NCBI GenBank assembly: GCA_944324365.1
Contig: CALUWA010000001.1
Location: 62,001 to 126,000, forward strand
Direction: 5' to 3'
Source: Candidatus Gastranaerophilales bacterium
GTDB taxonomy: Bacteria > Cyanobacteriota > Vampirovibrionia > Gastranaerophilales > Gastranaerophilaceae
DNA: 64,000 bases
In this document: one piece after another, positions 392-40,470 of the stretch
Position numbering within the stretch: position 1 is the stretch's first letter
Layout: every line of letters starts with the position of its first letter
Translations under genes and position numbers: made by a program
The notes under the pieces: generated by a model
Database searches by the model: none
What the model was told of the DNA's origin: nothing
The model's input: only the letters and a program-made list of their open reading frames with translations

Positions 392-420
392 TTGACAACA
401 GAATATGTTTCTACTAAAAT
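392..420 (+). promoter_or_regulatory. Promoter for the tRNA-Leu(TAA) transcript
   Basis: A perfect -35 TTGACA (392-397) and -10 TAAAAT (415-420) are separated by 17 bp. The predicted start near 427 lies about 340 bases upstream of the tRNA, so the tandem head-repeat units would be part of the primary transcript. Confidence 0.75.
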
Positions 421-456: not shown

Positions 457-768
457 GCCCTCGAGGTAGGAACTCCGCAAGAATGATGAAGTATCTTTGA
501 GTGGAGGTGAGTAGAAGCGTTTAGCTTTGGCTCTTGATTGAAATCTAAATAATCCCAGCCCTTGTGGCAAGGACTCCGCGAGAATGATGTAGTATCTTCG
601 GGTGGAGAAGAGTAGAAGCGTTTAGCTTCCAGCTCTTGATTGAAATCTAAATAATCCCTGCCCTTGTGGCAAGGACTCCGCGAGGACGATTGAGTATCGT
701 CCGAGATGGAGGGGAGAGTAGACGCGCGTCTAGCGTTCCGCTCTCGGGTTAAAATTAAATAGTCGCTT
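457..768 (+). repeat. Three tandem tRNA-head repeat units upstream of tRNA-Leu(TAA)
   Basis: Three diverged units start at 457, 558 and 660 (spacing 101, 102, 109). Units 2 and 3 begin with GCCCTTGTGGC, exactly the first 11 nt of the tRNA-Leu that follows at 769; unit 1 has a decayed head. After the head comes GGACTCCGCGAG or a close variant, a short hairpin (in unit 3 GGACGAT pairs with ATCGTCC), a GAGTAGA segment, a second hairpin, and an AT-rich end (AAATCTAAATAATCC in units 1 and 2). The open reading frame on the opposite strand here is a by-product of the repeats. Confidence 0.85.
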
Positions 769-858
769 GCCCTTGTGGCGGAATCGGTAGACGCGTTGGA
801 CTTAAAATCCAATCGGGGCTCAACCTCGGTGCCAGTTCAAGTCTGGCCAAGGGCACCA
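769..858 (+). tRNA. tRNA-Leu(TAA)
   Basis: A 7-bp acceptor stem (GCCCTTG with CAAGGGC) is followed by a D-arm, an anticodon loop CTTAAAA with anticodon TAA, the long variable arm of leucine tRNAs, and a T-arm with TTCAAGT. The discriminator is A at 855 and CCA is encoded at 856-858, unlike the three other tRNAs in the window. Copies of its 5' head lie upstream and copies of its 3' tail lie downstream. Confidence 0.95.
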
Positions 859-1302
859 TAAAAGACCTGAAAGGGTCTTTTTTTCTGCCATCCTTTCACA
901 CGCAGGTCTAAATTCGAGCGAAGCTCTCATTAAGACCTGGCGGTTTACCGTCAGATTTTTTCAAAATCTGCGGCATGTGGTCTTGCCGCCAATCGCCTTC
1001 GGCTCTTGGGCAATCCCGCACAAGTCTGGCCAAGGGCATTATAAAAGACCTGAAAGGGTCTTTTTTTTCTGCCATCCTTTCACACGCAGGTCTAAATTCG
1101 AGCGAAGCTCTCATTAAGACCTGGCGGTTTACCGTCAGATTTTTTCAAAATCTGCGGCATGTGGTCTTGCCGCCAATCGCCTTCGGCTCTTGGGCAATCC
1201 CGCACAAGTCTGGCCAAGGGCATTATAAAAGACCTGAAAGGGTCTTTTTTTTCTGCCATCCTTTCACACGCAGGTCTAAATTCGAGCGAAGCTCTCATTA
1301 AG
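841..1302 (+). repeat. Tandem 184-bp tRNA-tail repeat units (two full, one interrupted)
   Basis: Copies start at 841, 1024 and 1208, each opening with GTCTGGCCAAGGGCA, the 3' end of tRNA-Leu from the T-loop onward. Each then carries the terminator hairpin, a conserved segment with TTCGAGCGAAGC, a hairpin with AGATTTT/AAAATCT arms, and a GC-richer end. The first two copies differ mainly by one T in the T-run. The third stops at 1302, inside CTCATTAAG, and the remainder of the unit resumes at 1639-1703. The 68-residue reading frames here are repeat artefacts. Confidence 0.9.
860..884 (+). terminator. Terminator after tRNA-Leu(TAA)
   Basis: AAGACC pairs with GGGTCTT across a TGAAA loop, followed by a T-run. 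The same hairpin recurs in the two downstream repeat copies near 1,045 and 1,229. Confidence 0.8.
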
Positions 1303-10271: not shown

Positions 10272-10300
10272 TTGACATTTAATATATTTTAAGGTAACTT
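10272..10300 (+). promoter_or_regulatory. Probable promoter for tRNA-Leu(TAG)/tRNA-Ala
   Basis: -35 TTGACA (10272-10277) is followed after 17 bp by TAACTT (10295-10300). It lies about 60 bp upstream of the tRNA-Leu gene. A second TTGACA at 10351 is too close to the tRNA to serve. Confidence 0.5.
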
Positions 10301-10362
10301 GGAATCTGCGGGCAGTAACATTATGCTGTTTGCTTGAGATTTGACAATTGAATATGGCATGT

Positions 10363-39893: not shown

Positions 39894-40256
39894 ATTTGTA
39901 ACCTCCTTTGTTAAAGATTAATCATTCTATAAATATAAAAATTTTTAATTTATTTTACTTGCCTCAATTGATTGATTTGTTAAGATAAATTTACACCTTT
40001 AGTATGATTAACACTATTTTACTATTGTAACTTACTTTTATTCTCTTTTCAAGTGTTTCTTTCCACACTCCTTAAGTCGTAACAATTCTCCTTGTATACA
40101 TAGTATATCATAGACTTTTTAGATTGCAAAACTGCAAGAATTTGTTACATGAAGCATCCTCTGAACAATAAAGTATAAAAATTATAATTTGAACACGATT
40201 TGAACATGATGCAAAACTAATTTCCCGAGAAGCTTTATTATGCGCAAAAATAAAAA
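39894..40256. other. AT-rich gap between the HEPN pair and tRNA-Pro
   Basis: No convincing gene. On the minus strand it holds two GGAG-containing stretches and a 20-codon ORF (MIYYVYKENCYDL...) that is not well supported. Next to tRNA-Pro, GTTCAAATC and GTTCAAATT occur as a close pair, echoing the tRNA T-loop and a possible decayed attachment site. The promoter of the HEPN operon must lie here but I see no strong match. Confidence 0.4.
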
Positions 40257-40330
40257 TCGGAATGACAGGATTTGAACCTGCGACCCCCGCGACCCGAACA
40301 CGGTGCGCTACCAAGCTGCGCTACATTCCG
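40257..40330 (-). tRNA. tRNA-Pro(CGG)
   Basis: Acceptor CGGAATG pairs with CATTCCG, the D-arm is standard, the anticodon loop is TTCGGGT with anticodon CGG, and G follows the anticodon as in proline tRNAs. The T-loop is GTTCAAATC. Discriminator A; CCA not encoded. Its first 11 nt are repeated upstream at 40,460-40,470. Confidence 0.94.
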
Positions 40331-40470
40331 ATGGATTATTTGATTTTCTTGTAGCGCCCCTACGGTGCTACCTCTCCTCAAAACAATAATCAATTGTTTT
40401 TCGTCGGCAGAGTCCATACCTCTCACAAAACAATAATCAATTGTTTTGTTCGGCAGAGTGCTACATTCCG
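40331..40470 (-). repeat. tRNA-head repeat unit upstream of tRNA-Pro
   Basis: Read on the minus strand, the unit begins with CGGAATGTAGC, the first 11 nt of tRNA-Pro, then ACTCTGCCGA, and ends AAAATCAAATAATCCAT directly before the tRNA. Inside are two 46-bp copies of a segment with AAAACAAT/ATTGTTTT arms around TGATT and a GAGAGGTA tail, followed by a GTAGC/GCTAC hairpin. The start and end motifs match the tRNA-Leu units at 457-768. A -10 TATAAT at 40,479-40,484 puts the transcript start at the head copy. Confidence 0.8.

What the first reader, a model, noticed from the sequence alone, without database searches (positions are those of the whole stretch)
457..768. Structured repeat units built on the 5' head of tRNA-Leu, with the same end motifs at tRNA-Pro
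Units upstream of tRNA-Leu(TAA) and tRNA-Pro(CGG) each start with exactly the first 11 nt of the tRNA they precede (GCCCTTGTGGC; CGGAATGTAGC), continue with ACTCYGCxGA, hold a hairpin whose arms differ but whose loop is alike (TGAGT or TGATT), then GAG-AGTAG, a second hairpin, and end (A)AATCWAAATAATCC right before the tRNA. Different tRNA, different arm sequences, same architecture: this points to a family of small elements that insert at tRNA 5' ends and regenerate the tRNA, or a conserved tRNA leader structure. I know no described family of this kind.
Basis: partly seen in the sequence, partly recalled or inferred. Interest (0 to 1): 0.8.

Follow-up and report, generated by a model that had tools for sequence, protein, structure and literature searches.

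The report
Mobile hairpin repeats at tRNA ends
Gut bacteria of the order Gastranaerophilales carry a ~40-letter hairpin repeat that keeps turning up next to tRNA genes, each time with a broken copy of one end of that tRNA and always facing an intact tRNA; it looks like an undescribed miniature mobile element that damages tRNA genes without losing them.

Summary
The units share a ~40-nt hairpin module, E (ACTCTGCCGA-stem-loop-GAGAGG). In 23 distinct 41-nt copies, 9 of 10 stem pairs show double-sided changes. E matches no Rfam family. It is found in 135 of 143 sampled genomes of this family and almost nowhere outside the order. In three genomes surveyed with a covariance model, 30 of 40 copies lie within about 320 nt of a tRNA, and every one turns its GAGAGG side to the tRNA. 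There are two mirror forms: upstream and sense (copy of the tRNA 5' end), or downstream and antisense (copy of the tRNA 3' end). Other copies sit in loops of unrelated palindromic repeats. Empty and filled sites exist at the same tRNA-Leu(TAA) and tRNA-Pro(CGG) loci in related species. The closest pair (G012 empty, G004 with three units) shows that the unit is a duplication of leader plus tRNA head, with E at the junction. Best reading: a non-autonomous mobile or homogenised hairpin module, not a tRNA leader regulator. Its mobiliser is unknown; neither a RAYT transposase nor a reverse transcriptase fits. I rate it a new variant of known small dispersed repeats, with an unusual polar, tRNA-sparing association.

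The parts
392..420 (+). sigma-70-like promoter of the tRNA-Leu(TAA) transcript (-35 TTGACA, -10 TAAAAT), upstream of the array
   Evidence: 11 of 12 consensus matches, 17-nt spacer
457..557 (+). unit 1: decayed tRNA-Leu head 457-467, hairpin module E 472-506 (C-stem CTCC/GGAG), second hairpin about 509-533, AT-rich leader copy S 534-557
   Evidence: sequence, repeats, fold
558..659 (+). unit 2: exact head copy GCCCTTGTGGC 558-568, module E 573-607, second hairpin about 609-637, S to 659
660..768 (+). unit 3: exact head copy 660-670, module E 675-711, second hairpin about 714-745 (5' arm TAGACGC is a copy of the tRNA D-arm 3' strand), S 746-768
769..858 (+). intact tRNA-Leu(TAA), source of the copied head (769-779)
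   Evidence: ARAGORN, Rfam RF00005
40460..40470 (-). copied head of tRNA-Pro(CGG), CGGAATGTAGC
40419..40459 (-). hairpin module E, copy 1 at tRNA-Pro
   Evidence: covariance-model hit, 66.7 bits
40371..40413 (-). hairpin module E, copy 2 at tRNA-Pro (variant with ACGA..GAGGAGAGG base)
   Evidence: covariance-model hit, 49.8 bits; pattern
40351..40370 (-). second hairpin TAGCACCGTAGGGGCGCTAC: D-arm 3' strand copy plus its reverse complement, nearly the same in several species and genera
40331..40350 (-). leader stretch S (AAGAAAATCAAATAATCCAT) before the intact tRNA
40256..40331 (-). intact tRNA-Pro(CGG)
   Evidence: ARAGORN

Best explanation
The units are insertions of a non-autonomous miniature mobile hairpin (E, ~40 nt: ACTCTGCCGA, variable stem and loop, GAGAGG). 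Shown: E occurs with its conserved ends in unrelated contexts, in tRNA hairpin loops and in loops of other palindromic repeats; where empty and filled forms can be compared away from tRNAs, E plus about 2 nt replaces 5-6 nt without a target-site duplication. Shown: at tRNA genes the insert comes with a duplication that runs from the insertion point (D-arm, T-arm, or once the anticodon loop) out to or past the end of the tRNA, so an intact tRNA remains on the GAGAGG side and a dead partial copy on the other. Inferred: E is copied into a broken or single-stranded hairpin loop by a copy-choice or template-switching event. The jump back to the flank duplicates the tRNA end, and a fold-back leaves the second hairpin. 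Only events that keep an intact essential tRNA survive, which gives the strict polarity. Inferred: units then multiply by unequal exchange into short tandem arrays, and E copies are homogenised within each genome. The driving enzyme is unknown.
For: Covariation: 98.7% of stem cells paired, 9 of 10 stem pairs with double-sided changes, score 0.453 against 0.122 +/- 0.018 in shuffles. Polar tRNA association: 30 of 40 model hits in three genomes within about 320 nt of a tRNA, GAGAGG side facing it in 30 of 30, at about 19 separate loci. Two mirror forms. Empty and filled orthologous loci: at Leu(TAA) no unit is seen in G009, G008, G006, G002, G007, G001 and G010; G000 and G012 are filled; G004 has a scar. 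Pro(CGG) is empty in G012 and has three units in G004 of the same genus. In G004 the leader before each later head copies the native leader (TTTTGTGT-AAAAT..), and hairpin 2 is a fold-back of its start. Dispersed copies with empty counterparts in G016. Many identical copies in other palindromic repeats of G096, G232 and G148. Loops are alike within genomes: 0.65 against 0.49 identity, 0 of 1000 permutations.
Against: No mobilising enzyme found: RAYT/Y1 genes occur in 18 of 57 relatives and have their own REPs, and RVT_1 is absent from E-rich G016, G004 and G031. Most dispersed identical copies may have spread inside a host repeat rather than by their own movement. At tRNA-Pro the second hairpin is kept almost unchanged across genera, which hints at constraint. 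Several units (e.g. Leu(GAG)) close an H/H' stem, which could mean selection on RNA folding. In the window's own Leu array the AT-rich stretch S does not resemble the outermost leader, so the leader-duplication step is seen clearly only at some loci. No transposition event was observed within a species.
Confidence: 0.5

Rival explanations
1. The units are functional RNA in the tRNA transcript: a structured leader (hairpin, second hairpin, boxA-like TTGAAAAYTAAATA stretch) that aids antitermination, RNase P processing or feedback on tRNA level.
For: They lie between promoter and tRNA; arms covary; many sense units end in a stretch like TTGA(A/C)AA(C/T)TNAATA just before the tRNA; the Pro unit's second hairpin is kept across genera.
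Against: Mirror units lie antisense behind the tRNA, often beyond its terminator. Copies occur away from tRNAs. Orthologous tRNAs in sister species lack them. Most tRNAs of the genome have none.
Confidence: 0.22
2. A site-specific recombinase (integrase-like) uses the tRNA end as attachment core, so that each integration brings a new tRNA end and leaves tandem att-like repeats.
For: Repeated integration into a tRNA with a duplicated tRNA end and tandem accretion is what integrases produce (general knowledge); insertion points fall in D-, T- and anticodon arms.
Against: The inserted DNA is only ~75-110 nt with no gene. The duplicated stretch has variable outer ends, 0-47 nt beyond the tRNA. T and T' segments are copied from the target itself. 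Dispersed copies lack the duplicated end.
Confidence: 0.1
3. Ordinary tandem duplication of tRNA 5' or 3' ends followed by decay; E is just a hairpin that happens to be left in the copies.
For: In G004 the duplicated stretch is native leader plus head. A separate 184-bp array on the 3' side of the same tRNA-Leu also carries the tRNA 3' end without E.
Against: The same E core is found at more than a dozen different tRNAs, in both orientations, and in non-tRNA repeats. Strong covariation and invariant ends are not decay.
Confidence: 0.1
4. E is a REP-type palindrome moved by a RAYT (TnpA-REP, Y1 transposase).
For: Small palindrome, many copies, no target duplication at dispersed sites; Y1 genes exist in the window's genome and in G016.
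Against: The RAYT genes are mostly flanked by different palindromes with the REP tetranucleotide (e.g. GTAGGTTGGGCATACTTGCCCAAC) and not by E, apart from one tRNA-Gln unit about 260 bp away. E-rich genomes G004, G012, G020 and G031 have no Y1 gene.
Confidence: 0.03

Closest known systems
E. coli tyrT / rtT repeats (Rfam RtT; anatomy from memory; an rtT VNTR in Salmonella is listed in PMC2658671)
   Same: Tandem ~180-bp repeats at a tRNA gene, each carrying a copy of the tRNA end (3' end of tRNA-Tyr); copy number varies between strains.
   Different: One tRNA, 3' side only, no conserved hairpin module shared with other tRNAs. Here many tRNAs, both ends, a shared covarying module, copies elsewhere too.
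Small dispersed repeats of cyanobacteria (SDR5 etc., Elhai et al. 2008; paper not held, cited in PMC4390886)
   Same: Very small mobile repeats without genes, inserted precisely into other sequences, mobiliser unknown (partly from memory).
REP elements / REPINs with RAYT transposases (PMC3733652, PMC3116915)
   Same: 20-40 nt palindromes in many copies, often between genes.
   Different: E lacks the GTAG tetranucleotide and does not flank RAYT genes; these genomes have separate real REPs.
Kink-turn RNA motif (from memory)
   Same: E has the layout C-stem CTC/GAG, short loop, tandem G.A/A.G, second stem (invariant in all 23 copies).
   Different: The loop has four nucleotides (UGCC) rather than three; protein binding untested; it may act only as DNA.
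Integron attC sites (from memory)
   Same: Hairpins with conserved ends and covarying, freely changing arms, in tandem arrays.
   Different: No attC R-box consensus (RYYYAAC/GTTRRRY), no gene cassettes, tRNA-derived spacers.

Membership tests
REP element mobilised by RAYT | GTAG-type tetranucleotide next to the palindrome | tested here: not met
   E ends are ACTCTGCCGA and GAGAGG; the REPs at RAYT genes start GTAGG
REP element mobilised by RAYT | RAYT gene in genomes with the repeat, flanked by it | tested here: not met
   E-rich G004, G012, G020, G031 lack Y1; RAYT genes carry other flanking palindromes
rtT-type tRNA-end tandem repeat | Tandem repeats each containing a copy of a tRNA end | tested here: met
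rtT-type tRNA-end tandem repeat | Match to Rfam RtT RNA | tested here: not met
   cmscan finds only tRNAs at gathering level and no RtT at permissive threshold
Small dispersed repeat (SDR-like mini mobile element) | Short, gene-free, precise insertion with empty counterparts, many genomic contexts | tested here: met
Small dispersed repeat (SDR-like mini mobile element) | Same sequence family as the described cyanobacterial SDRs | not tested
MITE of a DDE transposon | Target-site duplication and terminal inverted repeats of a known IS | tested here: inconclusive
   No TSD at dispersed sites (5-6 nt replaced); duplicated flank of variable length at tRNAs; no matching IS was sought systematically
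Retroelement (TPRT-like) | Reverse transcriptase in genomes with many copies | tested here: not met
   RVT_1 not found in G000, G004, G016, G022, G031
Known cis-regulatory RNA (T-box or other tRNA-linked leader) | Match to a described RNA family | tested here: not met
   No Rfam 15 match beyond tRNA at a meaningful score
Kink-turn | C-stem, 3-nt bulge, tandem sheared G.A pairs, NC-stem | tested here: inconclusive
   C-stem, tandem GA and NC-stem present in all 23; bulge is 4 nt; structure not probed

The most novel reading that the evidence does not exclude
A new class of hairpin element, ~40 nt and with no gene of its own, enters the loops of structured RNA genes (tRNA D-, T- and anticodon arms) in one fixed orientation. 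Each insertion itself copies the outer end of the tRNA, so an essential single-copy gene is invaded over and over without being lost. This would be tRNA-sparing mobility by a built-in repair step, possibly acting through an RNA or single-stranded hairpin intermediate.
Probability: 0.3. Interest if true: 0.85.

Novelty: new variant of a known kind. Interest (0 to 1): 0.62.

Why it matters
How gene-free mini-elements of 20-50 nt move, and how they spare essential genes, is open. This family gives many separate insertions with a fixed polarity, covarying hairpins, genome-specific loop types and empty sites in sister species, so the insertion rule and the needed host factor can be worked out. It may also explain why some assemblies of these gut bacteria break at tRNA genes (units stand at several contig ends), and it is a trap for tRNA annotation, because partial tRNA copies are common.

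Tried and rejected
tRNA-leader regulator as sole explanation: rejected because of antisense 3' units and dispersed copies. RAYT transposase as mobiliser: tested in 57 genomes and by reading 20 RAYT loci, rejected. Own reverse transcriptase: rejected for the E-rich genomes without RVT_1. I considered that copied tRNA ends stop exactly at RNA ends (RNase P site, terminator), which would point to an RNA intermediate; the outer ends vary from 0 to 47 nt beyond the tRNA, so not supported. That the second hairpin is always a reverse complement of the intact target across the insertion site: true for a good part (mean longest match 7.0 nt against 5.2 in shuffles, up to 16 nt), not for all. Search for a 16S-linked boxA to compare with S: no 16S found in the assembly. 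BLAST of the region against phages and plasmids gives matches only within the tRNA-Leu part. IMG/VR pattern hits are mostly chance matches without a hairpin. Literature: no paper found on this repeat; Elhai 2008 not held.

Full report
What is in the window. Three tandem units stand between a good promoter (392-420) and tRNA-Leu(TAA) at 769. Each has the first 11 nt of the tRNA (decayed in the outermost unit), a hairpin module (here with base ACTCC..GGAG), a second hairpin and an AT-rich stretch that runs into the next tRNA head. At tRNA-Pro(CGG) on the minus strand one head copy is followed by two hairpin modules, a second hairpin and an AT-rich stretch.

Genome-wide picture. Of the tRNA genes of the genome, a minority have such units: Leu(TAA) x3, Leu(GAG) x3, Met(CAT) x3, Ile(GAT) x2, Pro(CGG), Pro(TGG) (inferred from the head at a contig end), Val(GAC), and with a different core (AGTGGAGTGAAACGGAACG) Thr(CGT) x1 and Phe(GAA) x2. 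The other tRNAs read have none, apart from an antisense unit behind Leu(CAA). The module, called E here, reads ACTCTGCCGA - stem - loop - stem - GAGAGG.

E is a structured family. On 23 distinct 41-nt copies the inner stem is paired in 98.7% of cells, 9 of 10 pairs have changes on both sides, and the covariation score is 0.453 against 0.122 +/- 0.018 in shuffles and at most 0.106 when slid. The outer CTC/GAG pairs never vary in this set, but the window's Leu units have ACTCC..GGAG, an extended version. The flanking GA/GA is invariant and gives a kink-turn-like layout, with a loop of four instead of three nucleotides; this is inference from sequence. Covariation could arise at the level of RNA or of single-stranded DNA; the data do not separate the two. 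Rfam 15 has no match.

Where E lies. A covariance model finds 12, 11 and 17 copies in G000, G012 and G020. Against the tRNA positions, 30 of 40 lie within about 320 nt of a tRNA and all 30 have the GAGAGG side facing it (about 19 separate loci, my count from the two tables). About 1-2% of the genome lies that close to a tRNA. One more copy (G000 C14) is cut by a contig end behind a Pro head. Two mirror forms exist. In form a, E is sense, upstream, and the copied head is the tRNA 5' end up to the D-stem or D-loop (..GTGGC| or ..GCAGTTG|). In form b, E is antisense, downstream, and the copied part is the tRNA 3' end up to the T-stem or T-loop (..GGAG|GGATTCGAACC), in Met(CAT) of L053 up to the anticodon loop (..CACGG|GTATGAG). 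In nearly all cases the next base of the intact target is G. Behind E follows a short copy of the target beyond the loop (T), usually with 5-6 nt missing (M), then a second hairpin, an AT-rich stretch S, and the intact tRNA.

Away from tRNAs. In G016, G020, G096, G148 and G232, E sits in loops or internal loops of other palindromic repeats, e.g. CCTCCCCAGATGG|E and GTCATCCTGAGC|E|GCGAAGGATC. Empty counterparts in G016 show GTACAC|GGAGT|GCGAGTGACGC becoming GTACAC-E-TA-GCGAGT, and TTTTGC|TGAAGT|GACCCC becoming TTTTGCG-E-TA-GACCCC: replacement of 5-6 nt, no target duplication.

Empty and filled tRNA sites. Next to the same neighbouring gene, tRNA-Leu(TAA) has no unit in G009, G008, G006, G002 and G007 (also none at the tRNA in G001 and G010, where the neighbourhood is less complete), three in G000, two in G012 and a scar (TGCCTTTGTGGCACATGCCCTTGTGGC) in G004. 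tRNA-Pro(CGG) has none in G012, three near-identical units in G004, and one or two E copies in G000, G008, G009 and G002, at two different insertion points. In G004 the stretch before each later head copies the native promoter-leader (TTTTGTGT-AAAAT..), and its second hairpin (ACACAAAAC-GAAA-GTTTTGTGT) is a fold-back at the start of that copy. A unit there is thus a duplication of leader plus head with E, T and a fold-back at the junction. At other loci, the window's Leu array among them, S no longer resembles the outer leader. Outer duplication ends vary from 0 to about 47 nt beyond the tRNA.

Dynamics. Loop types are genome-specific: core identity 0.65 within against 0.49 between genomes, 0 of 1000 permutations as high (shared descent within a genome is part of this). 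Pro units keep their second hairpin (AGCACCGTAGGTGCGCTAC) across genera while E arms and loops are exchanged. This fits repeated re-insertion or conversion of E; constraint on the unit is also possible.

Distribution. The pattern also hits a few genomes of families f6, f7 and f3. The genome-contig scan names most hosts as Candidatus Gastranaerophilales / Melainabacteria MAGs; the few others are chance matches or ambiguous bins.

Mechanism. The best reading is a gene-free mobile hairpin that is copied into single-stranded or broken hairpin loops, with template switching that duplicates the tRNA end and leaves a fold-back; only events that keep an intact tRNA survive. The anatomy, polarity and empty sites are shown. 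Copy-choice and survival bias are inferred. The enzyme is unknown: RAYT and RVT_1 do not fit.

Judgement. It works like a small dispersed repeat and resembles the rtT repeats of E. coli tyrT in carrying tRNA ends, but it is not a REP, not a described Rfam family and not a simple leader element. New variant of a known kind; the polar tRNA-sparing insertion is the surprising part.

Noticed in passing
window 838-1302: On the 3' side of the same tRNA-Leu(TAA) there is a second, unrelated tandem array: two identical 184-bp units plus a third partial one, each carrying the tRNA 3' end from the T-loop (CAAGTCTGGCCAAGGGCA) and the terminator, like rtT at E. coli tyrT; no E module inside. Parts of the trailer are 81-91% alike in G008, G010 and G003.
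   Followed up: partly
L001, L007, L075, L076, L082: A second core type (CCCAGTGGAGTGAAACGGAACGGAG) has the same unit layout before tRNA-Phe(GAA) and tRNA-Thr(CGT) in four genera.
   Followed up: partly
L388-L407: RAYT-like transposases (~180 aa, one to three per genome) flanked by classical REPs (GTAGGTTGGGCATACTTGCCCAAC and variants) in many Gastranaerophilales.
   Followed up: partly
L086, L088, L101, L102, L209: A third hairpin, AAGAACTCT-stem-AGAG without TGCCGA, abuts E directly on its 5' side.
   Followed up: no
L413, L416 (G020): E lies just upstream of, or inside, the start region of a pilin-like gene (AFTMAEILLSLTIIGVVAAI..) at two loci, with the same flanks.
   Followed up: no
window 10300-10361: tRNA-Leu(TAG) leader without E has a hairpin and the same kind of TTTGACAATTGAATA stretch as S; similar stretches precede tRNA-Asp, Asn and Leu(CAG). 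Possibly an old unit that lost E, or a boxA-like leader signal.
   Followed up: no
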